NCBI GenBank assembly: GCA_019894885.1
Contig: JAGXNP010000005.1
Location: 1-45,983, forward strand
Reading direction: 5' to 3'
Source of the DNA: Promethearchaeota archaeon
Lineage (GTDB): Archaea; Asgardarchaeota; Lokiarchaeia; Sigyniarchaeales; SOKP01
Length of the DNA stretch: 45,983 nucleotides
Made by a program: the position numbers and the translations under genes. The notes beneath the pieces are model-generated. The model was not told the DNA's origin, did not search any database, and saw only the letters and a list, made by a program, of their open reading frames with translations. Below are positions 1,750 to 31,767 of the stretch, in pieces (positions within the stretch are counted from its first letter, which is position 1; each line of letters starts with the position of its first letter).

Positions 1750-2661
1750 ATAAGCCTACGGCATCAAAAATTAAGGCTGCATAAGAACGGGGCAAAATTT
1801 CCTATAAGTAAAGCCTATATTGATGACGAACTCTTAGATCCTGAAATTTCCTATACTCTTATTTTGATCCCTGAAGTTAAAATCGCTACCCAAACTATTG
1901 TTTCACTAACTTTTTTTAAAAGAAAAAGCGGACCTCTCCTATACTATTATTATCCTGAGAATTCTTTAAATGTGATAGAAAAAACTAGTGTAGCAAATAG
2001 TATGGAGTCTTTATATAAATCTGCATATACTGAAAGATACTTTATTCACCAATCGAGTAATCTATCTTCATTAAATTATTATTTTGAAATTCACTCGGAT
2101 TGGGCTCGCGGGAATAAAGAGATGTTAATGATTAGTGTTATCCTCAATACGAGAATAACTAAGTCAATTGAAGACATAATTCTTTCGATTTGTATCGATT
2201 TTGAAACAGAATTAACAGTTATTAAAGATATCTACAAAGCATTATATGATAAAGATTTAGATATGTTTTCCGATGAAGAACAATCAGATATAGAAAAAAT
2301 CAGTAGAAATCTGCGTGCGAAAATAAAAGAATTTTATAAAAAAATAAGAATATTAGACAGTCAAAAATTTACAAAGGTTATATTCAAAGGTTCAATGGAA
2401 ATAGAAAAGAAATTAGACCTAATTCACATTGCTCAAGGAATTAAAGATGCAGAGTTTAATCCAGAGAGATTTCCCGGATTAGTTATGAAAATTGAGAAAC
2501 CAAACGCCACAATTCTTATGTTTTCTGATGGTAAATTGATGATAACTGATTTGAAAAATACATCTGAAGTAGATATAGTGGTTGATATTTTTATGGAAAA
2601 ACTTAAGAGTATAGGTATTATTATACCTAAACCAGAAATTACAATAGAGAGTTCCAAATAA
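1750..2661 (+). CDS. Fusion protein: AbrB-like N-terminus, longin-like middle, single TBP repeat at C-terminus
   Basis: The ORF track starts at a TTG (1864), but the same frame stays open back to 1702 and reads like protein: HKNGAKFPISKAYIDDELL, a pattern like an AbrB-type swapped hairpin (basic strand, G, IxK, YI). No ATG, GTG or TTG lies in frame upstream; I placed the start at an ATA (1750), but an ATG at 1742 is one frameshift away. In track numbering, residues 10-125 (FFKRKSGPLLYYYYP...NYYFEI...LMISVIL) resemble a longin/roadblock-like sheet-helix domain (tentative). Residues 174-252 match one full repeat of archaeal TATA-binding protein: LDLIHIAQGIKDAEFNP, RFPGLVMKI, ILMFSDGKLMIT, and a closing helix. 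Both DNA-kinking phenylalanines of a TBP repeat are kept (F203 in FPGL, F220 in LMFSDGK). Normal TBP has two such repeats; here there is one, so a DNA-binding form would need a dimer. A role in transcription is inference. Confidence 0.8.
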   Translation: MSLRHQKLRLHKNGAKFPISKAYIDDELLDPEISYTLILIPEVKIATQTIVSLTFFKRKSGPLLYYYYPENSLNVIEKTSVANSMESLYKSAYTERYFIHQSSNLSSLNYYFEIHSDWARGNKEMLMISVILNTRITKSIEDIILSICIDFETELTVIKDIYKALYDKDLDMFSDEEQSDIEKISRNLRAKIKEFYKKIRILDSQKFTKVIFKGSMEIEKKLDLIHIAQGIKDAEFNPERFPGLVMKIEKPNATILMFSDGKLMITDLKNTSEVDIVVDIFMEKLKSIGIIIPKPEITIESSK

Positions 2662-3092: not shown

Positions 3093-6000
3093 CTATACTA
3101 CAATTTCAGTAAGATAAAGAACAACTAATAATATAGTCCAAATAACTGTTAGCACTATTAAAATTATTGTAGTATAAAACCTCCACTTTATTGAAATCTT
3201 CTGTTTCTTTTCAATTCTGTAAATATAAATCGCAAGTATTGCTCCTAATATAATTATTGAAGACAATATCAGAATTATACCGAAAATAATAGAGGTTAAG
3301 TATGGTAATATCAAAGCAAATACGAATATGGTAAAACATATCCAAAGTCCTATAAAACGCTGCATTCTTTGTTTAAAAACTTGATCTACATCATCTGTTT
3401 TCGCGAATGGGAGTAAAAGGATTAAAATTCCCGCAGTTGCTCCACCTAAAAGAGATGCGTGATCCCATCTCAACAATCCTAAAACAATGTTGGAGAAGAG
3501 TATTCCAACTATTATCCCTACAAACAGGCATAAAATAATTCCTATCAATTTAAAGTGTTTTTTCAAGAAATTGAAAATAGAATAACAAACACCAACAAGG
3601 AAATTTTTAAATTTAATCAGAGCAAATCGTAGATTATCTATAATATTATTTAAGAATTTTTTCAATTCTTCTAACATAAAAATAAACAGGTATAACAACG
3701 TCCCTATTAATATCCAAGAGAAGCTCCATCCAGATGAAGTTAGATTAAGAGTAATTAAGCTTAATAGCAAGAACATTAATACGGAGTACAAGAAGGAAAA
3801 TAATTTGCTGCGTTTAAAAGGTTTGAATAGAACTAAATTTACTATCATAAAGATGAATAGTGATATGCACAAGTTTAAAATTAGATTCGGATTTATAATA
3901 AATTCTAATGTTATAAAAATATCTATCGATAGAAGGGTTTCAATACAGATAAAACCTGAAATCCGGATAAAATTCCTAGCCTTATCACTTACAACTTTAA
4001 TAAACTTGTCGATGAAGGTTAAAATTAGTAAGATAATAAACGATAATATCAATAAATTAAACGAAATAAAATAATCCGGATTAGTATAATATAAAGGCCA
4101 TGTGATTAAATCGAAGTAGACGATTAGAATTAGACCATTTTTAATCTTGGATATGTTGGAACTGATATAATCCCATTCTGATATTAACCGAAATAAGTAT
4201 GCGATTTGTATTATAAATAATATTATCGTGATAGGGAAAAGCTGTGGGAAAAACAATGAATTCCAATCAATGTAGAATAAGATTGAGAAACCTATCATAA
4301 CGATCCATGAAGTGATGATAAAAAATTTCGAGGTTTTCTTTAAAAACTTTAAAATAAACTTATCTAACAAACCTATCAAATGTGTTAGAATACTTAAAAT
4401 CAAGATAGCTATATGGAATTCTATACCAAATGCAGTCAACGAATTAAAGATGCTAGCTATTAGAAAGAAATATAAACCTATCCCTAAGTAATTCTGTCTA
4501 TTAATTTTCCATTTTCCAAATATTTCTAACTTTTCGGGATTAAATTTACTCCTAACATTGAAATATGAGATGTTAGTGTAATATTGCATTGATAAAAATA
4601 TCAAAAATATATAAAAAAGTGAAGTTATTGAAAAGCCATATAAATGAAATAAAATCAGAAGAAGAGTCCAGGAGATATTTAAGTAACTTAAACAGTGAAC
4701 AACATCAATATACCCTGCTTTTAAACGCTTTATGCCATATATTTCTAAAATACTGATTAAGAATAGAATAATCTGAGAATAAAGCAGACTTTCGAAAAAG
4801 CCAAAAAATAATCCAAAGAGTCCGAGAAATAAGACAGATATCTCTAAGTAAATGGTAAATACTAAAACTGAATAGAGTTTCTTTGTCTTTATAACCCATT
4901 CCTCGCTTTTTATAACAACTTTCGATAGATGTATTGAGTAAGCGGTAAGTATAGTTTCAGACAGTATAACTAAAACGATTCTTAAAAAATCGAGTATTGA
5001 GAATGTTATAAAAAGAGCGAGCCAGAAAATACCAAAAAACAATTGGAATGCTATGAAAGTAGAGAAAAGAATAATATTCTTATATTTTATTTCGACTGTA
5101 CGATTTAAAAAGCCATTTAATAGAAACATCAGAAATGAAAAGACAGCAAGAACGAAACTCCATGAAGGAATTCCTAATAATAATGGGTTGTAGGCTAAAA
5201 GTAAGTCATTCAATAATAGAGAAAGGTAAATACTAATCACAATAAAAATCATATTCAGTAGAATTGCTTGAGATTGATTTCTAATTTTTTTTATTCTACT
5301 AGCATCATATTTAATAATTACTTCGATATAGTAAGATAGGTAGTGTAAAGTATAGAACTGTAACATCAAAAATACTACTAAATTTAAAACAAATAATGTT
5401 GCATCCGTTCCTGTAAATTGAACAAAATAAATTAATGATCCGATCGAAATTACAAGAAATGCTACAATATTCAACAAATAGGTGATCTTTTCTATAGTTC
5501 TCTTTAAAATGTGGATATCTAATAGGGTGGAGAGGAAAAATATAGTAACGGATAATAAAATAGCTCCATATAAGTTAATATTCATTAACTCCTGAATCAA
5601 TCCAAGACTCAACAAACCAAGTTCAAAATGCGATAATAGTGACATAATTGAATCAAATTTCGTCATACCATAATCCTTTTCAGACCGCTGTTCTTCGATT
5701 TTCTTTATAAATAATAATCTTGATACCGAAAAATAAGCAGAATAAATTAAAAGTGAAAGTAAAACTATAAAATAGAGAGACTGAAATAATTCTATCAATA
5801 TTATAAATTGTAAGGTCAATAATGTTAATGCTAAAGGTGAAATGTACCATAAAATAAAACGATATTCATATAATGCTGGTCTAATAAAAATTAAATTAAC
5901 AAATATGAATATCGCACACAATAAAAAGATAGATCCTGGTAAGAAAACATAAACCAAAGAAGATAAAGTAAGCGATGTTCCAATCGATAAAATTACTAGA

Positions 6001-9000
6001 GGAAATATCTTTTTAAGGGGCATTATCATTCGGAATTTGTTAAATACAAGAACTGAGCCGCCAAAAACTGTAATTGCTAAAGATAAAGCGATGATTTCGA
6101 TATTAGGAATTAACATAAATGTATTGTAGGTAAAAAAGGAGAAATTTACAATTAATATTGACGAGATTATGGTATTAAAAAAAGTTCTGTTGAGTTTAAG
6201 AATCCTTGAAGAAAATAGACTGAAAGCGAGTATTATAAAAGAGAGGTTAATTGATATAAAGAAATTTAGAATTATTGAATTAATGATCAAAAAAATAGTT
6301 AGAAAAATACCTATCAGAGAAAGAAAATAAGAACTTACAAGTATAATGTTTTTCAAATTTTTTAAATTTGGGAAAAATGATAAAATTACGAAAAAGAATC
6401 CCAATACGATTAGATTAATTGATAAGCTAATTTCTAATGGTAATGAAATTTCTTGGAATAATATAACGAGGAAGCTTACATTTATAAAGATGTAAAATAG
6501 CCATAAGAGAGTAATGATCTTCCACATTTTCATTCTATAAATCACCGGCATTAGAAGAGATACTGCAAAAACAAAAAATACTATATTAGTAATCACTATA
6601 TTGTCAAAAAAGACATTTTGACTAAACCAGTATAAGAAGAATAAGCTAAAACTCCAAACTATTAGTAGAATCCTTGAGAAATGTTTTTTTATCCATGAGT
6701 ACCAAAAAGGTAGAGAAAGCAAAACACAAATTGTAAAAGATATTATAAATGAACCACTTATATTGAGGATCCCAAAGAAATTTAATGTGTTAGTATAAAT
6801 ATTAATGTCGGTAAAACTCTCGTTAATGATATAAAAATTTACGAAGGGAACAATAATCCATAACCTCCACCCTGTTTTCCATATTACCCAAGAGAATTTC
6901 CAGTAGTAAAAGCCTACTGATAGGTAGAATAGAAGGATGCCAATATTGATGGTTATAATAAGCAAGAAAGGATCCCATACAGGTAAATTAAAAGAGGCAT
7001 TTAAGAAAAAATACATAAAAGTTGGAATAGAAATAATGTAGGATGAAAAAGCAATATAGAAAGAACGTCGTCTGAAATTCTCAGGAGCTTTATTATAGGT
7101 TCCTACATAAGAAATACTGGTAACGCTTAAAGTTAGAGTGAATGTCAGTATTGGATTAAAATCTATAAAAATGGGATTATTAAATAGAATATAATAAGAC
7201 AAGAAACTTATTAGGTTAAATACCATAAGCAAAACACAAGGTCGGATGAACCACTTATAAAGATCATTTTTTTGCTTGTAGTAGAAATTACCTGTTAATA
7301 TTAAAAATAAGAACAGAGAGAAAGAAATGTTATAAATTAAAGGAATTATGGTATTGTAGAGTAGTAAATTAAAGGTTATAATCGATATTAATAGATATAA
7401 AGCGAATTTTTCGATTACATTAACATTCCGTATGTTTAACACAATAGAAAAGAACAAGACAATCATTAACGAAAAATTGAAATAAAAAAGATAAAAAGGG
7501 AAGTCGAATAGGTCGAGTGAAGGAAGTAACATATAATAATTTAATGTTGTAATCAATTTTACTAAAATTAACCAGCTAAGTGAGAAGTAACTAATAGTTC
7601 GAAATACATAATTGCGATTCCTATTGGAAATAAGTAGATAGATCATAATAATAAAAAATACATAAGAAAAATATTCGAAAACACTCGGAAATATAGAAAA
7701 GAAAGTAAATAGAAGTAGAGTTGGACCTAGTAATATTTTTATTAGTTTGAATTCAGACACATTCTCAATTATATCATTGTATTTAACCAGATAATAATTG
7801 AATAACGAATAGATACCACAGAATAAAATAATAAGTCGTAGTGGTTGATATGCGCTGTAAAATGGAAAAACTTGACTATAATTCCAATATAATTCACTGA
7901 ATATAATAATTAAGCCAAAATAGAAAATATAATAGATGAGTCTTTTGTAAAATGCTAGAGAATCATCAGAGATAAAAAAGTTATTTCTTAGATAATAAAT
8001 GGTAATAGGACTGATGAAGAGTAAAAATACTAAAGGTAAACCAATCCTTTGTATCAGAGATAATTGAGCAGGGATAATTAAAATATAGAAACACAATAAA
8101 ATTTTAATTAATACCCATGCGGATAAATCAAAAGCCCACCTAAGTCTTGAAAATTGAATTTTGAATAAGTAGCGACTGACTGTTGATACTAGTAGGTAAC
8201 TTAACAGAAATATTCCAACATATGTTGTTAATGTTAATAGTAGGGACTCTTGAAGCTGAAATAGCGTATGTATACTTTGCAATGGAAACAGAAAAATAGT
8301 AAGCGAAGCTACTATAAATTCGATGAAAAAATAAGATATATTTTTAGTATATTCATATATTTTATAGATTCTGTAATAATCTAATTTACTTTGTTCGTTT
8401 TCAAATATCCTCTGCTTGAGATTTTCAAGCGGAATTAAGATAACGAGATTCAAAACAAGAAATACTAATGAGGAACAACTGATATCGATTCCAACATTAT
8501 GAGTAAAGGAGTTTAAAACTACAAAAAACTTCGCAGAGATAATAAAAGATAAAATCACCCAGGTGATAATCTGGCAAGTTTTAACAGAAACGAAATAGGA
8601 TTCTTTAAGTTTATATTTATCAAAGAGAAATTCTAAAAAAACTAAGAATCCAAAAAATAAAGCAATTGCAGCACTATTGATTATATAATAATCTACAACT
8701 AAACCTAATCTATTAAAATCTAATCCTATTAGATAAGGAAGCGAAATTACTAATACAGATATGACTAAACTGTCGATTATTAACAATCTCTCTATAAATC
8801 TGGTGAAAATATTCTTATTTAGGGAATAAAATAGAGGGAATAATAGAGATATGCCTAAGATCAGCAGAGGAATATTATATGCATAAACGGAAGTAGATAG
8901 AAACAAAAATAGATAAAAAGAGATGAGAATACTGGTGAAACACAAAGTTACTATATTAAATCCATTCGAAATTTTTTCTGAAAATAAAATTCTCTTCTTG

Positions 9001-11231
9001 GATAAAAAATTGATAATCAAGCAAATAAGAACGATCGATATGTATGCTGAAAAAATTGGTTCAAATTGGAGTTGTTGGTTAAATATGGAGAACATTATGA
9101 AGAAAGCTTCTAGCATTATTAAATAGCTAATATAATTTTCAATTACCATAACTTTTTCATGGGATATAACATCTATCTTAACTCCCAATTTTAAAGTGTA
9201 ATAACACGCAATAGTTATATAGAGAATATTAAGCACGATTAACGAATTTAAAATTGTAAAAAATAGAGTAGTAATTAAATAGAAGTTGAATATAAAGACT
9301 GACAGAACTATGATGCTGGAGCAAAAGAAATGATATATCAGGAAGGATTTTCGATTCATAATATTTTTTTTATGGAGATAATAGATGGGAATATAAGAGA
9401 GCAAGCTAACTAAAATAAGAGGTATAAAATATACCAAGAACGAGTCCTTAGTGTAAATCGCACTATAATATCCCACCATAAATAAACCTAAATATAACGT
9501 AAATGAGTTTAATATCAACGCCAGGACCTGAGGAAAGATTTTACTTTCCTGTGAATCCAGATATACAATTAGGCTTATTATCGTTAATGATAAAAACGAA
9601 GAAATAAGTAAGTCTAATTTCATATAAATCATGAAAAATGTTAGAAGCAAAGCAAAAACTTCGAATACAATAGGATAAGATATAATATTCAAATAAGATC
9701 TAGATTTTGATTCTTTGAGCATTCTTATTTTCTTTCCATAAGAAATTAGGATGACTAGACAAATGGATATAAACAATAGGTCAAATAGAGTTCCAATAAT
9801 TAGATGTGCGCTAAAATATATTACAATTATAAGCAAGTTCAAAGCAAAAAACAAAAACATGAGCACCCATGAGGAACTATAAGTGTAAATTGCGATGAAT
9901 TTAGGTTTTAATACCTTTTCGCCATACAAGTAATAAATCGGAGCAAAAACCAAGAAACAAAAAATAATCGGGGTAATTAAATATACATAAAAATCATTTA
10001 TATTTGCGTCTAAAAAGAAAAATCCAACAATAACAATATCAAATATCAAGATAAATAATGTCAATGTTATTTTTACTTTTCTAGGAACAACTACTACATT
10101 CGAAGGAATTAGATTAAATATGACACCAATAACGCAACAAGAAAGGAACAAAGCAAGAAATTCGTCCAAAAGGAATACAAAACTGAAGATTCCATAAAAT
10201 AATAAGAAAATTTCAATTAATAGCGTAAAACTATCAACTCTAATTATAAAATTGAAGGTAGAATCTTTAACTTTTTTTAGAATGTGTCCAAATCTAAGGT
10301 TAAATAAAATAAAAACTGAAAGATATACTAGATCTAGAAGCAGAATCACAAAATTATTCCAAAAAATTATAAATAATGTAAAAAAAATCGAGAAAAGTAA
10401 AAACCAGCAAACATAATAGCTATATACCAAGCTAATTTCTCGAGAGAATATGCGAATTATATAGTTGAAAAGCACGAATAAAAGGAATATTATTGGAAGT
10501 AAAATTGAACATAAAATTAATTCTCCTTGAAATACCTCAGGAATTCCCAATGCTACATTATTAATAGTAACTATAACAAACCAGGTAGTTTCTAATAGTA
10601 AAAAGAGGATCACAATACAATAATTAAAAAGTTTCCAAGGTTTTTCGTATAACCGAAAGCGAGCATAAGAAAAATAAAAGGAAAGTAATGTAATTGCTAA
10701 AACAATAATGGTGTGAATTAATATATTGGAGATTAACAGTACATTTGGATCGACTATGAACTGTAAATATACAAATTCGATTATTGGAAAGAAAGAGTAT
10801 AAAATTATTGTAAAACTGGCAACAACGAGCAGATTTTGAATTATTAATACCGTTTTTTCTTGAAAATACTTAAGCCTCTCAAAAACTTGAAATATTACAT
10901 ATGAAGATAGTGAGAGTAAAAGAAATTGAACATTTAAAAGCCCTATTCCAAAATAAAATGGAAAGATCCAAAAGATTATAACGAATAACATTCCTAAACT
11001 ACTAAAAAGATATATATACCTGCCGTAAAGAATGGTAGTAAAGTTCGCTTTTTCTTCGTAATAGGTGAGAATCAAAATTATTGGTAATGTAATAATACTG
11101 ACTAAAGGATTATTATTCAATGATGAAATTGAGAGGATTAGAAGAATTAAACTGACTGAGACAATAAAATTTAACTTTATAAAAGTTTTAATCTCACCAG
11201 TATCAACCTCTTCAGCATTGTTAGAACTCAT
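3093..11231 (-). CDS. Giant polytopic membrane protein made of ~180-residue repeats (2,712 aa)
   Basis: The product is 2,712 residues and almost entirely hydrophobic, with dozens of likely transmembrane helices joined by short basic loops; only the first ~16 residues are clearly soluble. The N-terminal half shows a repeating unit opened by a Pro-hydrophobic motif: PIIFLLFVLFNYI, PIIFCFLVFAPIYYL, PLILVSLLSYIPIYYL, PLLILGISLLFPLFYSL, then PLVFLLFISPITIYYL. Counting by hand, three successive units are about 175, 183 and 184 residues, each with about six helices, so the whole protein may hold some 14 diverged copies. There is no signal, catalytic motif or nucleotide site I can identify. A late DHASLLGGATAG resembles part of a rhomboid helix but lacks its catalytic histidine. 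The start overlaps the end of the upstream membrane gene by 11 bases, so the two are probably co-translated. Function unknown. Confidence 0.85.
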   Translation of the reverse strand: MSSNNAEEVDTGEIKTFIKLNFIVSVSLILLILSISSLNNNPLVSIITLPIILILTYYEEKANFTTILYGRYIYLFSSLGMLFVIIFWIFPFYFGIGLLNVQFLLLSLSSYVIFQVFERLKYFQEKTVLIIQNLLVVASFTIILYSFFPIIEFVYLQFIVDPNVLLISNILIHTIIVLAITLLSFYFSYARFRLYEKPWKLFNYCIVILFLLLETTWFVIVTINNVALGIPEVFQGELILCSILLPIIFLLFVLFNYIIRIFSREISLVYSYYVCWFLLFSIFFTLFIIFWNNFVILLLDLVYLSVFILFNLRFGHILKKVKDSTFNFIIRVDSFTLLIEIFLLFYGIFSFVFLLDEFLALFLSCCVIGVIFNLIPSNVVVVPRKVKITLTLFILIFDIVIVGFFFLDANINDFYVYLITPIIFCFLVFAPIYYLYGEKVLKPKFIAIYTYSSSWVLMFLFFALNLLIIVIYFSAHLIIGTLFDLLFISICLVILISYGKKIRMLKESKSRSYLNIISYPIVFEVFALLLTFFMIYMKLDLLISSFLSLTIISLIVYLDSQESKIFPQVLALILNSFTLYLGLFMVGYYSAIYTKDSFLVYFIPLILVSLLSYIPIYYLHKKNIMNRKSFLIYHFFCSSIIVLSVFIFNFYLITTLFFTILNSLIVLNILYITIACYYTLKLGVKIDVISHEKVMVIENYISYLIMLEAFFIMFSIFNQQLQFEPIFSAYISIVLICLIINFLSKKRILFSEKISNGFNIVTLCFTSILISFYLFLFLSTSVYAYNIPLLILGISLLFPLFYSLNKNIFTRFIERLLIIDSLVISVLVISLPYLIGLDFNRLGLVVDYYIINSAAIALFFGFLVFLEFLFDKYKLKESYFVSVKTCQIITWVILSFIISAKFFVVLNSFTHNVGIDISCSSLVFLVLNLVILIPLENLKQRIFENEQSKLDYYRIYKIYEYTKNISYFFIEFIVASLTIFLFPLQSIHTLFQLQESLLLTLTTYVGIFLLSYLLVSTVSRYLFKIQFSRLRWAFDLSAWVLIKILLCFYILIIPAQLSLIQRIGLPLVFLLFISPITIYYLRNNFFISDDSLAFYKRLIYYIFYFGLIIIFSELYWNYSQVFPFYSAYQPLRLIILFCGIYSLFNYYLVKYNDIIENVSEFKLIKILLGPTLLLFTFFSIFPSVFEYFSYVFFIIMIYLLISNRNRNYVFRTISYFSLSWLILVKLITTLNYYMLLPSLDLFDFPFYLFYFNFSLMIVLFFSIVLNIRNVNVIEKFALYLLISIITFNLLLYNTIIPLIYNISFSLFLFLILTGNFYYKQKNDLYKWFIRPCVLLMVFNLISFLSYYILFNNPIFIDFNPILTFTLTLSVTSISYVGTYNKAPENFRRRSFYIAFSSYIISIPTFMYFFLNASFNLPVWDPFLLIITINIGILLFYLSVGFYYWKFSWVIWKTGWRLWIIVPFVNFYIINESFTDINIYTNTLNFFGILNISGSFIISFTICVLLSLPFWYSWIKKHFSRILLIVWSFSLFFLYWFSQNVFFDNIVITNIVFFVFAVSLLMPVIYRMKMWKIITLLWLFYIFINVSFLVILFQEISLPLEISLSINLIVLGFFFVILSFFPNLKNLKNIILVSSYFLSLIGIFLTIFLIINSIILNFFISINLSFIILAFSLFSSRILKLNRTFFNTIISSILIVNFSFFTYNTFMLIPNIEIIALSLAITVFGGSVLVFNKFRMIMPLKKIFPLVILSIGTSLTLSSLVYVFLPGSIFLLCAIFIFVNLIFIRPALYEYRFILWYISPLALTLLTLQFIILIELFQSLYFIVLLSLLIYSAYFSVSRLLFIKKIEEQRSEKDYGMTKFDSIMSLLSHFELGLLSLGLIQELMNINLYGAILLSVTIFFLSTLLDIHILKRTIEKITYLLNIVAFLVISIGSLIYFVQFTGTDATLFVLNLVVFLMLQFYTLHYLSYYIEVIIKYDASRIKKIRNQSQAILLNMIFIVISIYLSLLLNDLLLAYNPLLLGIPSWSFVLAVFSFLMFLLNGFLNRTVEIKYKNIILFSTFIAFQLFFGIFWLALFITFSILDFLRIVLVILSETILTAYSIHLSKVVIKSEEWVIKTKKLYSVLVFTIYLEISVLFLGLFGLFFGFFESLLYSQIILFLISILEIYGIKRLKAGYIDVVHCLSYLNISWTLLLILFHLYGFSITSLFYIFLIFLSMQYYTNISYFNVRSKFNPEKLEIFGKWKINRQNYLGIGLYFFLIASIFNSLTAFGIEFHIAILILSILTHLIGLLDKFILKFLKKTSKFFIITSWIVMIGFSILFYIDWNSLFFPQLFPITIILFIIQIAYLFRLISEWDYISSNISKIKNGLILIVYFDLITWPLYYTNPDYFISFNLLILSFIILLILTFIDKFIKVVSDKARNFIRISGFICIETLLSIDIFITLEFIINPNLILNLCISLFIFMIVNLVLFKPFKRSKLFSFLYSVLMFLLLSLITLNLTSSGWSFSWILIGTLLYLFIFMLEELKKFLNNIIDNLRFALIKFKNFLVGVCYSIFNFLKKHFKLIGIILCLFVGIIVGILFSNIVLGLLRWDHASLLGGATAGILILLLPFAKTDDVDQVFKQRMQRFIGLWICFTIFVFALILPYLTSIIFGIILILSSIIILGAILAIYIYRIEKKQKISIKWRFYTTIILIVLTVIWTILLVVLYLTEIVV

Positions 11232-12159
11232 TGATTTTATACCTCCTTAGGAATTTGCTGTAGAATGAAGTTACGTATAATCTGATTTTAAAGTAAAATG
11301 CTAAGAACACGAGAGACAATAACGATATGGTTATGATTTCTATGAGGTCGTGATGAATACCAACATAAATATAGACGATAACTATAACGAAGGGCATTTG
11401 AATTAACAGCACGAATACTAAACCTAATAAAGAATTTACAAATTTTTTCTTAAAAATTGTTAAGTCCTCTAAGAACGGTTTCTTACTGCCGATCGAACTC
11501 GTAATATTTTTAAAGTTTTTTACGCTGGAGAGTCGAGAAATAACATAAAAAATGATGTTCCAAATGAGAGGAAATAACCAAGAGACTTTTGTATTAAAAG
11601 TATAAGAGAGGAATACTATATGAACAATGTAATTAACAAATACCATGATATTATAAGGTTGGCTAATAATTTGAGAAGAAGAAATTGCATACTTGAATTT
11701 CTCTTCCGTAGGATCAAAAAAACCAATGGGTTGAAAATAATAATAATAATATACAATATTATACAAGATAATAAAAGAAATTAAAGGTAAAAGCTCAAAG
11801 TAGTTCTCTCCTGGAGTAAGTAACACAAAAATAGGGGTAACGATTAAAGCTAAGATCGTAATTAAGAAGACGATATTAATTCTTGCGGAAGGATTGTTTA
11901 ACTTATTGGAAAAAAAGGGAACTTTCCTGTATTTGTCGAATGCCTTATAAAAGAATAATAAAACAAACATAAAAGTTATAACAGACAACCCAACTGAAAC
12001 ATAAAGGTCTTTACCTATAAAAAAATAAATGAAAAATCCAACAACTGCTATTAATGACGGAACAATCATTAAATAAAAACTAAACCACCAAATTTTCCAA
12101 AGTAATTCGGTTGCCTTTTTGATCTTTTCATCAGAATAGCTGATTTTATTAGATTTCAT
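11221..12159 (-). CDS. Multi-pass membrane protein in operon with the giant protein
   Basis: A 312-residue protein with a charged N-terminus (MKSNKISYSDEKIKKATELLWKI) and about eight hydrophobic segments: near residues 22-50, 53-72, 92-112, 121-142, 168-190, 195-210, 240-270 and 275-295. Its hydrophobic and aromatic style (LLPLISFIILYNIVYYYYYF) resembles single units of the giant protein that follows, and its stop overlaps that gene's start by 11 bases, which suggests translational coupling and joint function. I see no conserved catalytic or transport motif. It could be an ancestral or partner unit of the repeat protein; that is inference. Confidence 0.8.
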   Translation of the reverse strand: MKSNKISYSDEKIKKATELLWKIWWFSFYLMIVPSLIAVVGFFIYFFIGKDLYVSVGLSVITFMFVLLFFYKAFDKYRKVPFFSNKLNNPSARINIVFLITILALIVTPIFVLLTPGENYFELLPLISFIILYNIVYYYYYFQPIGFFDPTEEKFKYAISSSQIISQPYNIMVFVNYIVHIVFLSYTFNTKVSWLFPLIWNIIFYVISRLSSVKNFKNITSSIGSKKPFLEDLTIFKKKFVNSLLGLVFVLLIQMPFVIVIVYIYVGIHHDLIEIITISLLSLVFLAFYFKIRLYVTSFYSKFLRRYKINEF

Positions 12160-12310: not shown

Positions 12311-13633
12311 TTATTGAAATTTGGGTAAGAACTCACTCTGTAATTCTTTCATCTCGGTGAAAATTCTTTCTGCTATCTCAAAACTCCCCACATTAGGATC
12401 TATTGCTAATGCATTGATTGCTACTTCTTTGGATTTAGTAAGAATCGCTTCAACGCACAGATCTTGGATACTTGCTTCAATTCGTAGAACAGCTGCAATG
12501 TTTATCGGTAATTTTCCCCATTTAACTCCGCGTATACCCGATTTACTAATTGTTACCGGACACTCAACAATCAAATCTTGTGGTAAATTTTCTATGATTC
12601 CATCGTTTGGAATGTTGACAGCGCTCTCATAGGATGGTTGGTTAGTTATTATCGCTTCAATAATAGGAACTGCACGCTCTCCTGATATTCCTTTTGAGTG
12701 CATACCTTTTTTGAGATATTTTCCCTCTTTAAGTCGCTTATAATTCCTCATAACCTTCCTATAGATTCGTTCACCGTGCTTTTCAGTTCTATTAATCCAA
12801 TCTACCATATCTTGTGTTTCAGTAAATTCCTCACCAAACTGTAAATATTCACCAAGATGATTATCCCCTACATATGGAAAATAACCAAATCTTTTGAAAA
12901 CTTCAAATGTCAATGAAGAGAATTCGAACTTATGTTCTTGTTTTTTAAAATACTCTAGAGCTATTTTGTTAAATTTTGGCATTAAATCCATTCCAGAAGA
13001 GATTTCCTCAAGTCCCATTAAAAATCCAAAATGATTTAATCCATATGGTTTTAGTTTTAAATTCTCTAAGTTTTTATTGAGCATTTGAGGTAAATGGTAA
13101 ATGAGAGCACCAATTTGATGGCATAGCCCAATAAATTTAAGGTTTGGTGTGGTTCTTTTGATGGCTAGGCATACTCTTGCCATTGGATTAGAAAAATTTA
13201 TAAATAAAGCGTTTGGACATATATCTTCGACATCTTTTACAATATCTACAATTGGAGGTACTATTCTAAAAGCATGCATAGTTCCCCCTGGACCACCACA
13301 TTCGCCTAAAATTTGTTTTGACCCGTACTTTCGTGGAATTTTATAATCTTCTCTCCACAATTTAAAGCGATTTCCTACTTCTATGGAATTAATTATGAAA
13401 TCTGCGCCCTTTAATGCATCTCTACGGTTTGTAGTGTGCTCAATAATAAATTTATCGTTGTGGATTTTGTTTTCGGTTGTAATTAATTCATAAATTATAT
13501 TTAAATGTTCTTTATCGATGTCGTGTAATACTATTGTCGATCCATGCAAAAATTCACTTTGAAAGAGATCCAATAACGTAGAAGGTCCAAAAGAGGTACT
13601 GCCTGCTCCTATTAAAACTATTTTACATTTCAT
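12311..13633 (-). CDS. Glycoside hydrolase family 4 (alpha-galactosidase/6-phosphoglycosidase type)
   Basis: The 440-residue product has the marks of GH4, enzymes that cleave glycosides by NAD+-dependent oxidation at C3 with a divalent metal. The N-terminus is a Rossmann dinucleotide site (IVLIGAGSTSFGP). Further motifs are GECGGPGGTMHAFRIVP (about 110-126), FINFSNPMA (about 144-152), the metal-binding cysteine in GLCHQIG (C171) and the metal-binding histidine in LNHFGF (H201). Length is normal for the family (about 430-470). The substrate cannot be fixed from sequence; GH4 members act on alpha-galactosides, alpha-glucuronides or phosphorylated disaccharides. Start is the ATG at 13633, and a TATA-like ACTTAAATAA lies close upstream. 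The gene seems to be transcribed alone. Confidence 0.9.
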   Translation of the reverse strand: MKCKIVLIGAGSTSFGPSTLLDLFQSEFLHGSTIVLHDIDKEHLNIIYELITTENKIHNDKFIIEHTTNRRDALKGADFIINSIEVGNRFKLWREDYKIPRKYGSKQILGECGGPGGTMHAFRIVPPIVDIVKDVEDICPNALFINFSNPMARVCLAIKRTTPNLKFIGLCHQIGALIYHLPQMLNKNLENLKLKPYGLNHFGFLMGLEEISSGMDLMPKFNKIALEYFKKQEHKFEFSSLTFEVFKRFGYFPYVGDNHLGEYLQFGEEFTETQDMVDWINRTEKHGERIYRKVMRNYKRLKEGKYLKKGMHSKGISGERAVPIIEAIITNQPSYESAVNIPNDGIIENLPQDLIVECPVTISKSGIRGVKWGKLPINIAAVLRIEASIQDLCVEAILTKSKEVAINALAIDPNVGSFEIAERIFTEMKELQSEFLPKFQ

Positions 13634-14896: not shown

Positions 14897-16066
14897 CTAA
14901 TTGAGAGTTCTTTCTATTCTTTCTAAGGCTTCTTTTAATTTTTCAATTGGTTGGGTTAAAGCGAATCTTACAAAACCTTCTCCATAAGTGCCAAAGCCCG
15001 TACCGGGAGTTAGGATTACGCCTTCGTTAATTAACTTTTTAACGAACTCCATGCTATTTGTTTCTCCTTCCGGTATACGAGTCCAGACATAAAAAGTCGC
15101 TTTAGGCTTGTCCGTGTTCCAACCGATATCATTAAGACCCTTTACTAAAACATCGCGCCTTTCCTCATATATTTTTACATTATCTCTTACGATTTTAGGT
15201 TTTTCTTCTGATTTATATTCATTTAAACCTTTTATTACAGCTTTTTGGATAAAAACTGGGCATCCCGAATCAATGTGAGACTTAACCTTCCTTAATCCAC
15301 TAATAATATCCTTATCCCCCACTGCCCATCCGCACCTAAATCCTGTCATGCAGAACATTTTTGACGAGCTATTAATTTCTACGTGATTCTGATCTATCTG
15401 CAAAAGCGATGGAGCGATATAATCCTCGTAAGTGAATTCTGAATACGGATTGTCATAGACAATGATGAAATTATAATCCTCTGCGTTATCTACGGCTTCT
15501 TTTAGAAATTCTTTCGTTGCTATTGCGCCAGTTGGATTATTTGGGTAATTTAAATACATTAATTTAGCTTTTTTTAAGATTTTACTTTCAATAACTTCAA
15601 AATTGGGTAAAAAGTCATTTTCTCTTAGTAAAGGAATCGAAAATATTTTTCCATCACATAATTTAGTGGCACCATTTTCATATACGGGATAACCGGGATT
15701 AGGGCATAATACAATATCTCCGGGATTAACAAACACTCTAGCGATATTAGCTACTCCCTCCTTTCCTCCTATTAGATTAGTTACTTCATCATTAGCATCA
15801 AATTTTAAATTAAATCTGACATCATACCACTTCTGTACAGCCTCTCTAAAATCTTGTTCTCCCTTACTTGATGGGTAATTTTGATTTTCGGGGATTTTTA
15901 CTTGATTAATTAGTTCATTAATAATCATCTCTGGAGTCGTTAAATCCGGGTCACCTATCCCTAAGGGGATGAAGTCTATTCCTTCCTTTTTCTTTTCATT
16001 GATTAGTTGCTCAATTTCAGCGAATATGTATCCTGGTAACTTGTTAATCCTATTTGCATATTTTAT
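14897..16066 (-). CDS. PLP-dependent class I/II aminotransferase (LL-diaminopimelate aminotransferase-like), start codon unclear
   Basis: The track begins at ATG 15928, but the frame stays open 45 codons further and encodes the normal N-terminus of the family, KYANRINKLPGYIFAEIEQL and then LGIGDPDLTTPE. No ATG, GTG or TTG occurs in that stretch; the best start positions are an ATA (16066) or ATT (16072), just after an in-frame TAA at 16073-16075. A TATA-like TTTATTTAC lies about 33 bases ahead. Full length would be about 389 residues, normal for fold-type I enzymes. Seen motifs: the PLP lysine in SSSKMFCMTGFRCGW, NYPNNPTGA, and YDNPYSEF. It moves an amino group between an amino acid and a 2-oxoacid in the cytoplasm. 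DapL-like is the closest style I recognise, but aspartate/alanine-type specificity cannot be excluded. Confidence 0.85.
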   Translation of the reverse strand: MKYANRINKLPGYIFAEIEQLINEKKKEGIDFIPLGIGDPDLTTPEMIINELINQVKIPENQNYPSSKGEQDFREAVQKWYDVRFNLKFDANDEVTNLIGGKEGVANIARVFVNPGDIVLCPNPGYPVYENGATKLCDGKIFSIPLLRENDFLPNFEVIESKILKKAKLMYLNYPNNPTGAIATKEFLKEAVDNAEDYNFIIVYDNPYSEFTYEDYIAPSLLQIDQNHVEINSSSKMFCMTGFRCGWAVGDKDIISGLRKVKSHIDSGCPVFIQKAVIKGLNEYKSEEKPKIVRDNVKIYEERRDVLVKGLNDIGWNTDKPKATFYVWTRIPEGETNSMEFVKKLINEGVILTPGTGFGTYGEGFVRFALTQPIEKLKEALERIERTLN

Positions 16067-16851: not shown

Positions 16852-17961
16852 GTGGATAAAGAACATAATAAAGTATGGTATAAAGCAGCGCTAACTATAA
16901 TCAAAGCAGGACAACTTCCTATGGTAGTTAATGATGATCTTATTGAATTATTGAGACTGATAATGACTGATGAACAAGCTGAGTTTATAACAGTTTTCAG
17001 AAAACCTTCGCTAAGCATTGATCAGTTAAAAGACAAAACTAATTTGGATGAGGAAGCTTTAACACAGACTTTAAACGCTCTAATGGACAACGGAATTATC
17101 GTTGGCGTTCTTAGTAGGAGATCGGGTATTATGGTGTATAGACTTCTTGGACCGTTCCCCGGCCTTTTTGAAATGCAGTTCATGAGAGGAGAAACGGGAG
17201 AAAAACAAAAGAAACTTGCACAAATTTTCGACAATATTTTTAAGGAATTAAGTAAAGGAACTCAAAATAATTACGAAAATATCGTAGAACAATATAAAAA
17301 TTACCCTCCAATAACAAGAGTTGTCCCTGTTGAAGAGGAAATAAAAGATGTTCCTGTTGATAAGATATTACCTTATGAAGAAGCTTCTAGAATAGTAGAA
17401 AAGTATGATGATATCGCTCTAGTTCATTGTTACTGTAGACATGAAAAGGATTTACTTGAACACTCTTGTAGCGTAACAAATGAGAGATTAAATTGTTTTT
17501 TATTAGGAAAAAGCGCACAATTTGCTATTAAACATAATTTTGGTAAATCAATATCGAAAAAGGACGCAAAATCAATAATAAATAATGCGTCTGATGAAGG
17601 CCTCGTTCACAAGGCATTCCATGTTCACCTTAAACCAGAATTAGACGAAGAAGCCCTCTGCAATTGCTGTCGCTGTTGCTGTGGTATATTCTCATTGTTT
17701 TGGGAGGGTATTTCGCCGTACCATTGCTATACAAGTTATTTAGCGGAAGTTGACGAGGATTCTTGCGTTGGATGTGGTACATGTGTAAAGAAGTGCCCTA
17801 TGGAAGCAATTGATTTGGTCGAAAATATTGCATCAATTAATAGTAGTAGATGTATAGGCTGCGGTGTATGTGTTCACCATTGTCCCGAAGAAGCAATGAA
17901 ATTAAAAAGAACAGGGAATCGGGAAGTCTTTGTACCCCCTCCAAAAATAAAAACAACTTAA
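16852..17961 (+). CDS. Fe-S protein: winged-helix-like N-terminus, Cys-rich centre, C-terminal 2x[4Fe-4S] ferredoxin domain (paralogue 1)
   Basis: GTG start; 369 residues. Residues ~30-110 look like a winged helix (LRLIMTDEQAEFITVFRKP ... LMDNGIIVGVLSRRSG). The centre has CYCRH with further cysteines (about 190-215) and a dense CNCCRCCCG cluster (about 267-275). The C-terminus carries two ferredoxin repeats, CVGCGTCVKKCP and CIGCGVCVHHCP, for two [4Fe-4S] clusters. The next gene starts 17 bases on and encodes a paralogue; a third lies at 30706..31767. This domain set recurs in anaerobic archaea, and I know no proven function. A redox-sensing or electron-carrying role in the cytoplasm is inference from the clusters. 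Confidence 0.85.
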   Translation: MDKEHNKVWYKAALTIIKAGQLPMVVNDDLIELLRLIMTDEQAEFITVFRKPSLSIDQLKDKTNLDEEALTQTLNALMDNGIIVGVLSRRSGIMVYRLLGPFPGLFEMQFMRGETGEKQKKLAQIFDNIFKELSKGTQNNYENIVEQYKNYPPITRVVPVEEEIKDVPVDKILPYEEASRIVEKYDDIALVHCYCRHEKDLLEHSCSVTNERLNCFLLGKSAQFAIKHNFGKSISKKDAKSIINNASDEGLVHKAFHVHLKPELDEEALCNCCRCCCGIFSLFWEGISPYHCYTSYLAEVDEDSCVGCGTCVKKCPMEAIDLVENIASINSSRCIGCGVCVHHCPEEAMKLKRTGNREVFVPPPKIKTT

Positions 17962-17978: not shown

Positions 17979-19073
17979 ATGACAGAAAAATCTTGGTACC
18001 AACTAGCTAGAACTATCCTTAGGGCAGGAGGACCTCCCGTCCCTATCAACGATACGCTTTTAGACTTAATAAAGCTGTTAATTAATGAAGAACAGTTAAA
18101 GTTCCTTTTAAATTTTAGAAAACCTATGAACCTCGACCAAATTAAATCCAAAATAAATCTTGAGAATTTCAAATTAAATGAAATGCTTAACGATTTAATG
18201 GATATAGGAATGATAACAGGTATACCCAGTAGAAATACTGGTATAATGGTTTATAGATTAGTTGGTTTTCTACCAGGATTACTAGAATTTACTCTTATGC
18301 GTGGTGAAACTGGACTAAAACAACGGAAAATTGCTGCTTTATGGGATAAATTGTTTAAGGAAGAAGCAATTATAACTCAGAAAAATTACGAAGTCGTAAT
18401 GAAGGCATTTAAAGATGCTCCACCAATTGATAGGGTAGTCCCTATTGACCGTCAAATTGACCCACCTGAAGATATGGTAATACCTGAGGATGATATAAGA
18501 AAAATTATAGAGAAATATGACATTATAGGCGTATCCTATTGCTATTGTAGACATCTTAAAGATTTATTGGATGAACCATGTAAGATAAATGCTCCAAGGA
18601 AAAATTGCTTAAGTTTTGGTAGAACAGCAAAGTTTGCTATCGATCATCAATTTGCTGAACAAATCTCGAAAAAAGAAGCAACAAAAATAATTGAAGAGGC
18701 AGAGGAATTAGGATTAGTTCATAAAGCTTTTCACATAAAGGGAGATCCCACAAATAATGAACTAGCAATTTGTAATTGCTGCAAATGTTGTTGCGGAAAC
18801 CTTCAAGCGTTTTATTCTGGCACATCTCCAACTCATACATATACTTCTTATATCGCCAACATAAACGAAAACGATTGCGTTGGATGTGGTACATGTTTGG
18901 ATGTTTGCCCAATGAATTCAATAGAATTAGAAGATACAACCGCCTTAGTTAATGAGGAAAGATGTTTTGGATGTGGAGTATGTGCTAGTACATGTCCTGA
19001 GAACGCAATAGAATTACGAAAAACAGGACTTAGGAAAGTTTTTATTGCTGCTCCTAAAGTTTCATTATCCTAA
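17979..19073 (+). CDS. Fe-S protein with winged-helix-like and ferredoxin domains (paralogue 2)
   Basis: 364 residues, colinear with the gene just upstream: the same opening (SWYQLARTILRAGGPPVP against VWYKAALTIIKAGQLPMV), the same PFPGL/FLPGL and MRGETG motif after the winged helix, CYCRH, CNCCKCCCG, then CVGCGTCLDVCP and CFGCGVCASTCP. It begins 17 bases after the previous stop, with AAGGT as a weak ribosome site, so the two form an operon and arose by tandem duplication. Divergence is large enough that they are probably not redundant; they might form a heterodimer. Confidence 0.85.
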   Translation: MTEKSWYQLARTILRAGGPPVPINDTLLDLIKLLINEEQLKFLLNFRKPMNLDQIKSKINLENFKLNEMLNDLMDIGMITGIPSRNTGIMVYRLVGFLPGLLEFTLMRGETGLKQRKIAALWDKLFKEEAIITQKNYEVVMKAFKDAPPIDRVVPIDRQIDPPEDMVIPEDDIRKIIEKYDIIGVSYCYCRHLKDLLDEPCKINAPRKNCLSFGRTAKFAIDHQFAEQISKKEATKIIEEAEELGLVHKAFHIKGDPTNNELAICNCCKCCCGNLQAFYSGTSPTHTYTSYIANINENDCVGCGTCLDVCPMNSIELEDTTALVNEERCFGCGVCASTCPENAIELRKTGLRKVFIAAPKVSLS

Positions 19074-30705: not shown

Positions 30706-31767
30706 TTAACTATTTCTTCTTTTAGCTTCAAGTATTGCTACTCCCATGTCAAATACTCTATTAAATGGTTCCTCACCATCTTTTCTTGGTTTCAAGCTAA
30801 TTGCTTCTTCTTGACATACGCTGGCACATAAACCGCATCCAAGGCATAAATCCCGATTCACTATTGCAATATCTTCTATATTTATAGCTTTAACCGGACA
30901 CCTTTCAATGCAATTTCCGCAAACTACACATAGTTCTTCATCGATAATTGATTCAAACACAGCATTCATGAATTTTTTTTTATCTTGTCCAAATTGAGTC
31001 ATACCTTTCATGGAGGCACAACAACAAGGGCAACAATTACAGATATTAGAGAGGTGTTTCGAATTTGCTCCAGCATGAACTAAACCAGATTCATCTGCTT
31101 CTTTAATGATTTTAATTGCTTCTTCAGCTGTTATTTTTCTTCCGATATTGTTTTCTATATAATATTCAGCAGCAGTTCCAAAGCTTAAACAAGTTTCCAT
31201 TGGGTGTTTACATCCTTCATTTAATAGCTGCGATTCTTTTCTACAAATGCAGTCGGCTACAGCAATAACCCGCGCATTTCTTATTGATTCTTTAAGCATT
31301 AGATACGGAAAAAGCGTGGTATCAGTTTTAATAGTCTCTTCTAATGGAATCACTTTAAAGCCGGGAATATTACTTACACCTATCTCTTCAAGGCCCGCTG
31401 TATGATAATATTCTTTAAAAAGTTGAGCTAGTTCTTTATCAATTTTTTTGACAGAGTATTCATACAAGCCTATCATAAAAGGAGCAGCATTAAATAGAGT
31501 TTTGTCATCTCGCCGTGATCGAAAAATAAGTCCTTTCTTTGCCATTACTTCAAGCTTGTCTTCTATTTCAACCAAAGTTTTTCCTACTCTTTTTGCAATA
31601 CTACTGGCTCCTTCGGGTCTTATAGTTAGGAATGTAGTCAATTCAGCTTCTTCTTCAGTAAAAAGCCACCTTAAGATTTCAATTTCAACTCCAGATTGAG
31701 TTTTACGGAATCCTATTGGAAATTGATCAAGGAATTCTCTTAATTTCTCATACGAATTTACAGTCAT
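30706..31767 (-). CDS. Fe-S protein with winged-helix-like and ferredoxin domains (paralogue 3)
   Basis: 353 residues with the same order as the pair at 16.9-19.1 kb: a winged helix (LRWLFTEEEAELTTFLTIRP), CICRK with further cysteines (about 171-195), CNCCPCCCA, and two ferredoxin repeats CVVCGNCIERCP and CLGCGLCASVCQ. In the last motif the family's usual Pro after the final Cys is Gln, which is tolerated in some ferredoxins. It is more diverged than the other two are from each other. It lies between the radical SAM gene and nicotinate phosphoribosyltransferase, both of the same strand. Function unknown. Confidence 0.83.
   Translation of the reverse strand: MTVNSYEKLREFLDQFPIGFRKTQSGVEIEILRWLFTEEEAELTTFLTIRPEGASSIAKRVGKTLVEIEDKLEVMAKKGLIFRSRRDDKTLFNAAPFMIGLYEYSVKKIDKELAQLFKEYYHTAGLEEIGVSNIPGFKVIPLEETIKTDTTLFPYLMLKESIRNARVIAVADCICRKESQLLNEGCKHPMETCLSFGTAAEYYIENNIGRKITAEEAIKIIKEADESGLVHAGANSKHLSNICNCCPCCCASMKGMTQFGQDKKKFMNAVFESIIDEELCVVCGNCIERCPVKAINIEDIAIVNRDLCLGCGLCASVCQEEAISLKPRKDGEEPFNRVFDMGVAILEAKRRNS

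What the first reader, a model, noticed from the sequence alone, without database searches (positions are those of the whole stretch)
3093..11231. 2,712-residue membrane protein of tandem ~180-residue units
The motif Pro-hydrophobic(8-10)-Pro-hydrophobic-Tyr recurs, and three neighbouring units count to about 175, 183 and 184 residues by hand. Nearly the whole protein is hydrophobic. I know of no archaeal membrane family of this size with such repeats and no catalytic domain. With the overlapping 312-residue membrane gene it forms a two-gene unit. It could be a scaffold that shapes or thickens membrane, or a lipid-channelling array; both are speculation.
Basis: partly seen in the sequence, partly recalled or inferred. 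Interest (0 to 1): 0.72.

Follow-up and report, generated by a model that had tools for sequence, protein, structure and literature searches.

The report
Giant modular Lokiarchaeal membrane repeat protein
Lokiarchaea carry, usually as a single copy per genome, a gene for an enormous protein of about 90 membrane-crossing helices, partly built of duplicated blocks whose number changes between close species; it matches no family or solved structure searched here, and its job is unknown.

Summary
The 2,712-residue ORF is a real, conserved gene and the repeats are real, but they cover only part of it. Three units of 184 residues (residues 315-870, 6 helices each; 111-165 bits against 7 for reversed sequence) lie in the N-terminal third, and two units of about 260 residues (8 helices) at 1856-2375. 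The rest, including the best-conserved part (1321-1761), shows no clear periodicity. The overlapping 312-residue gene is the protein's N-terminus: it is fused to the giant in most relatives, so the intact molecule has about 3,024 residues, roughly 90-95 transmembrane helices and no gap between predicted helices longer than about 45 residues. Relatives of 2.5-4.3 thousand residues occur in 59 of 79 genomes of the same order and in 0 of 149 other genomes of the phylum, normally one per genome. Unit number differs between close species by recent tandem duplication, in steps that keep an even number of helices. Ka/Ks is about 0.27. Nothing matches Pfam, NCBIfam, PHROGs, PADLOC or the PDB. Best reading: a membrane-embedded repeat scaffold with variable arrays around a conserved tryptophan-rich core, PIEZO-like in layout only (membership tested, not met). 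Function is unproven.

The parts
11221..12159 (-). 312-aa ORF, 6-8 predicted TM helices: the N-terminal segment of the giant protein, encoded separately here
   Evidence: fused in frame to the giant in most relatives; topology
11241..11248 (-). AAGGAGGT, Shine-Dalgarno-like, 9 nt before the giant's ATG, inside the end of the upstream ORF
   Evidence: junction sequences, similar GAGG motif in most split relatives
3093..11231 (-). 2,712-aa giant membrane protein, about 81-87 TM helices
   Evidence: 35 full-length ORFs of 2,524-3,331 aa including this one; Ka/Ks about 0.27
10290..11231 (-). N-terminal module, residues 1-314 (its end, from about 196, is weakly related to the A units)
   Evidence: conserved Q132, Y186, N256, W276; lag 180 match
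9738..10289 (-). repeat A1, residues 315-498, 6 TM
   Evidence: 111 bits
9186..9737 (-). repeat A2, residues 499-682, 6 TM
   Evidence: 122 bits
8622..9185 (-). repeat A3, residues 683-870, 6 TM
   Evidence: 165 bits
5949..7271 (-). most conserved core, residues 1321-1761, found in all order-level relatives
6681..6905 (-). core motif, residues 1443-1517: Trp/Lys interfacial helix, broken helices, invariant W, P, N, GS
4887..5666 (-). repeat B1, residues 1856-2115, about 8 TM
   Evidence: 188 bits
4107..4886 (-). repeat B2, residues 2116-2375, about 8 TM
   Evidence: 268 bits
3096..4106 (-). C-terminal module, residues 2376-2712, with conserved EKxxISIKWRFY near the end

Best explanation
A single integral-membrane scaffold protein of about 3,024 residues, split here into two overlapping, probably translationally coupled genes. 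About 90-95 short-looped transmembrane helices form a long array: a conserved N-terminal module, an expandable block of A units (6 helices, or shortened copies of about 130 residues), a conserved Trp-rich core, an expandable block of B units (about 8 helices) and a C-terminal module. Shown: size, split/fusion, repeats, unit-number changes, purifying selection, order-restricted and normally single-copy occurrence, absence of any recognised domain. Inferred: the arrays act additively as a membrane-embedded ribbon that spreads in, organises or bends the bilayer, and the core, with its interfacial Trp/Lys helix and broken helices, is the working site that either anchors the cytoplasmic face or responds to membrane state.
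For: Unit number varies in whole units between close relatives: two species about 93% identical over their first 600 residues (L056 3,124 aa, L057 2,745 aa) differ by one B unit and one shortened A unit, with neighbouring copies 81-85% identical. This fits an additive array better than a compact fixed fold. Units have even helix numbers, so topology is kept. Lys/Arg-rich and Lys/Arg-poor loops alternate along AF2 helices, and in a hydropathy-only segmentation 80 of 88 loop-to-loop changes alternate against a permuted mean of 58 and maximum of 72. Gaps between predicted helices never exceed about 45 residues. AF2 models are rows of helices and their weak Foldseek hits are mostly alpha-solenoids and toroids. 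Ka/Ks about 0.27 along the length.
Against: No functional data. AF2 pTM is only 0.38-0.42, so the overall shape is not established and the Foldseek hits (none below E 0.001) are not evidence of kinship. Conserved acidic residues inside helices (E214, E340, E2130, D2437) and conserved P/N in the core could equally belong to a transporter. Local gene order (GH4, aminotransferase) suggests nothing structural. The very clean in/out charge split of the charge-guided topology (188 against 9) is not discriminating, because a null reached nearly the same ratio.
Confidence: 0.42

Rival explanations
1. A giant transporter or channel: the conserved core is the translocation unit and the arrays are accessory helices that tune or anchor it.
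For: Core has broken and short helices, a short beta hairpin outside the membrane, and invariant W, P, N and G-S; conserved acidic residues in several inward-to-outward helices.
Against: No match to any transporter family or fold; unit number varies between close species; no nucleotide-binding or substrate-binding domain in the protein. ABC transporter genes lie downstream mainly in one related genus.
Confidence: 0.27
2. A membrane-embedded enzyme or flippase acting on lipids or lipid-linked glycans, with the arrays as a lipid-channelling surface.
For: A family 4 glycoside hydrolase gene lies upstream in many loci of the window's family (27 loci); large lipid-facing surface.
Against: No conserved catalytic-type residue cluster in the alignment; gene order is not kept in the more distant families.
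Confidence: 0.15
3. A sensor of membrane tension or thickness analogous to PIEZO, with variable blades and a central gate.
For: Size, tandem helical units, no soluble catalytic domain, conserved centre with interfacial Trp/Lys helix.
Against: No PIEZO hit by Pfam or by profile against PDB chains; no cap domain; unit sizes differ.
Confidence: 0.12
4. Not a functional protein: a hydrophobic open frame in AT-rich DNA, or an assembly artefact.
For: DNA is about 27% G+C here; some relatives are broken or cut (L033 in-frame stop, L063, L064).
Against: 35 full-length ORFs, Ka/Ks 0.27, conservation down to about 20% identity across families, independent assemblies.
Confidence: 0.02

Closest known systems
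PIEZO channels (eukaryotic mechanosensitive channels)
   Same: About 2,500-2,800 residues in one chain; tandem multi-helix membrane units; no catalytic domain (PIEZO features from general knowledge)
   Different: No sequence match; more than twice as many helices; repeats of 6 and about 8 helices rather than 4; no large extracellular cap or long cytosolic regions; unit number varies between close species
Giant proteins of Asgard archaea (aloposon genes Otus and Ephialtes, and other Asgard proteins over 3,000 aa; PMC8813620)
   Same: Very large Asgard proteins of unknown function
   Different: Aloposon genes are tandem pairs in mobile elements integrated at tRNA genes with a MinD/ParA gene; here a single gene (or split gene) spread through one order, no tRNA in the window. 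Whether this family is among the other giants in that paper's figure could not be checked
DUF2339-type bacterial polytopic membrane proteins (lead from memory)
   Same: Long chains of transmembrane helices, function unknown
   Different: No Pfam hit; far fewer helices

Membership tests
PIEZO | sequence homology to PIEZO models or structures | tested here: not met
   no Pfam family at E up to 1 or in 30 relatives at E up to 0.1; no PDB chain at E up to 10 for single sequence or two profiles
PIEZO | fold similarity to solved PIEZO blades | tested here: inconclusive
   no PIEZO among listed Foldseek hits, none below E 0.001, but models have pTM 0.38-0.42
PIEZO | repeated 4-helix units | tested here: not met
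   full units are 184 residues / 6 helices and about 260 residues / 8 helices; shortened copies of about 130 residues occur in relatives
PIEZO | large extracellular cap domain near the C-terminus | tested here: not met
   no gap between predicted helices longer than about 45 residues
PIEZO | tension-gated ion conduction | not testable with these tools
   needs electrophysiology
Aloposon giant genes | tandem pair of giant genes next to tRNA with MinD/ParA gene upstream | tested here: not met
   no tRNA in the window; single giant gene; upstream genes are GH4 and aminotransferase
DUF2339 or any other Pfam/NCBIfam membrane family | HMM match | tested here: not met

The most novel reading that the evidence does not exclude
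A new class of membrane machine confined to Lokiarchaea: a modular ribbon of about 90-120 transmembrane helices whose length evolves by adding or losing even-helix blocks, and which senses or shapes the membrane of these archaea, an independent archaeal counterpart of PIEZO-like giant membrane scaffolds.
Probability: 0.22. Interest if true: 0.9.

Novelty: categorically new. Interest (0 to 1): 0.68.

Why it matters
By helix count this would be among the most extreme single-chain membrane proteins described (PIEZO has about 38, from general knowledge); the largest relative seen, 4,296 aa, has roughly 105-125 by hydropathy. It is conserved under purifying selection and normally single copy in the archaeal order in which it was found. 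It shows that membrane proteins can grow by adding multi-helix blocks much as soluble repeat proteins do. It also gives a concrete, order-specific candidate for the unusual membrane architecture of Lokiarchaea.

Tried and rejected
Family searches (Pfam, NCBIfam, PHROGs, PADLOC) and PDB sequence searches with single sequences and profiles: nothing above noise. Two AlphaFold models with Foldseek against PDB and viral models: no hit below E 0.001. Core profiles across 228 genomes of the phylum: nothing outside the order. Search for stand-alone one-unit proteins: none, except one marginal match in a 335-aa ORF (G157, E 7.7e-4). Weak lag of about 1,030 between residues 850-1440 and 1890-2460 (hhalign 34-39 against a reversed maximum of 29): possibly an ancient large duplication, not claimed. 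Charge-guided topology as proof of membrane orientation: rejected, because a shuffled null reached nearly the same ratio; only the hydropathy-only and AF2-based alternation are used. Neighbouring GH4 and aminotransferase genes as a functional clue: rejected as general, since they are not adjacent in the more distant families. Mobile-element or virus origin: no support found.

Full report
WHAT IS THERE. The window is one contig (G000:C235) of a 3.2-Mb genome bin; named relatives found by DNA scan of GTDB genomes are all Candidatus Lokiarchaeota or Lokiarchaeia. ORF 3093-11231 (-) encodes 2,712 residues without interruption. Composition is 17.6% L, 15.8% I, 12.2% F. The 312-residue ORF 11221-12159 (-) lies directly upstream and overlaps it by 11 bp, with AAGGAGGT ending 9 nt before the giant's ATG.

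REPEATS. Self-comparison of a profile built from 35 full-length relatives, with the protein's own composition as background, gives the strongest mean lag at 184 (z 6.1), then 368. The best 90-column diagonals score 93.7 (residues 315 against 499), 72.8 (354 against 722) and 61.0 (1885 against 2143), while the reversed profile never exceeds 29.5. Iterated HMM searches give three full A units in the window protein, 315-498, 499-682 and 683-870 (111, 122, 165 bits; reversed best 6.6-7.4), 18-28% identical to each other. A second family, B, has two copies, about 1856-2115 and 2116-2375 (188 and 268 bits; reversed best 4.9), 28% identical. All-against-all hhalign of 200-column windows agrees: up to 166 for A, up to 93 for B, reversed maximum 29. 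A stretch at 196-338 is also related to the A array (54.0). Remaining self-similarity (34-39, lag about 1,030) is too close to the null to claim.

ONE PROTEIN, SPLIT. In L024, L029, L032, L034, L035, L041-L054, L056-L059, L061 and others the homologue of the 312-aa ORF is the N-terminus of the giant ORF itself; it is separate in most of the window's genus and in L055 and L060. Separate genes overlap by 4-44 bp or lie within 3 bp of each other. The simplest reading is one protein of about 3,024 residues that is split in some lineages; the direction (fission or fusion) was not tested with a tree.

TOPOLOGY. Hydropathy gives 79-87 helices in the giant and 5-8 in the upstream ORF, with a mean spacing of 31 residues and no gap between predicted helices above about 45 residues. 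In a segmentation that ignores charge, Lys/Arg content of successive loops alternates at 80 of 88 steps (permuted mean 58, maximum 72 of 2,000). On the independent AF2 helices of residues 683-1860 the alternation is nearly unbroken, for example 2.7, 0.5, 3.7, 0.8, 3.9, 0.2, 4.0, 0.2, 3.0. Charge-guided topology gives 95 helices in all, but its in/out charge ratio is not discriminating against a null. A units span 6 helices and B units about 8, so adding or removing one keeps orientation.

RELATIVES AND VARIATION. The giant is found in 56 of 79 genomes of the order by single sequence and in 59 of 79 by a core profile, with 0 of 149 outside the order but in the phylum. Genomes carry one core match each; the exception, G002, is a gene cut across two contigs. 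One genus (g15) lacks it in all five genomes, two of them more than 90% complete. One family has longer forms of 3,508-4,296 aa, with about 81-125 helices by hydropathy. Full-length forms elsewhere in the order are 2,524-3,331 aa. Differences are in whole units: L056 (3,124 aa) and L057 (2,745 aa) are 92.7% identical over their first 600 residues, yet L056 has one more B unit (two copies 81% identical) and one more shortened A unit (neighbours 85% identical). L041 (3,331) and L044 (3,074) differ by 257 residues, one B unit. Ka/Ks against the two closest orthologues is 0.27 and at most 0.36 in every 300-codon block. Unit matches occur only inside giant ORFs, apart from one marginal match.

CORE. 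Residues 1321-1761 are most conserved (mean column identity 56% over 22 relatives). Invariant even with the most distant family included are W, P, N, G-S and several further W and P positions. Here AF2 breaks the helix row: a Trp/Lys-rich short helix near 1444-1457, a short helix 1460-1472, a small beta hairpin near 1483-1491, then short helices to 1516. Confidence in exactly this stretch is low. Conserved acidic residues sit inside several inward-to-outward helices, including E214, E340, E2130 and D2437.

STRUCTURE AND FAMILY SEARCHES. AF2 for residues 683-1860: pLDDT 69.7, pTM 0.38. For residues 1240-1850: pLDDT 75.1, pTM 0.42. Foldseek against PDB and viral models: nothing at E below 0.001; the weak PDB hits are mainly alpha-solenoids and toroids. 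No family in Pfam, NCBIfam, PHROGs or PADLOC, and no PDB chain, matches; the only sub-threshold NCBIfam matches are chance-level (E about 0.1). The papers searched gave no description of such a family; PMC8813620 mentions many unrelated giant genes across Asgard archaea without naming this one in the text.

HOW IT LIKELY WORKS. Shown: an intrinsic membrane protein of about 90 helices, modular, with unit-number change, a conserved core, and selection. Inferred: because array length changes between close species while the core and ends are conserved, the arrays probably act additively as a membrane-embedded scaffold, with the core as anchor or sensor. A transporter with accessory helices is the main rival. 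No result here decides between them.

LIMITS. Genomes are mostly bins, so absence in single genomes is weak evidence. Helix counts are hydropathy-based. Structure predictions used 30 sequences. Occurrence outside the phylum was tested only with two degenerate core peptides over GTDB genomes, which reaches close relatives only.

Noticed in passing
window 1864-2661 (+): 265-aa ORF (TTG start) with a single TBP repeat at its C-terminus (PF00352, E 1.5e-18, residues 176-249) after about 175 residues with no Pfam match; an unusual arrangement for a TATA-binding protein. Homologues at two related loci.
   Followed up: partly
window 12311-13633 (-) and 14897-15928 (-): GH4 glycosidase and class I/II aminotransferase genes stand upstream of the giant in many loci of the window's family (27 and 23 loci), but not in the more distant families.
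   Followed up: yes
window 16852-17961 and 17979-19073 (+): Two adjacent, similar proteins with paired 4Fe-4S-type cysteine motifs in tandem, both with homologues at the same six related loci; a third similar protein at 30706-31767 (-).
   Followed up: no
L077:17966-19189 (-): A flotillin/SPFH (Band 7) gene lies directly upstream of the 3,932-aa relative; a gene of similar length (413 aa) holds the same place in L076. Possibly relevant to membrane organisation.
   Followed up: partly
L033:11425-11447: The relative in G026 is interrupted by an in-frame stop (ORFs of 2,065 and 796 aa, same frame): true split, pseudogene or sequence error not resolved.
   Followed up: partly
L063 and L064: In two single-contig genomes (G067, G068) only about the first 811 or the last 1,300 residues of the giant are found at the locus.
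   Followed up: partly
G157:C90:10351-10617 (-): Marginal match (E 7.7e-4) of the A-unit profile to a 335-aa ORF outside the order; the only hint of a stand-alone relative.
   Followed up: no
window 3853-8684 (-): giant residues 850-1440 against 1890-2460: Weak collinear self-similarity at a lag of about 1,030 residues, slightly above the reversed null; could be a trace of an ancient duplication of a large block.
   Followed up: partly
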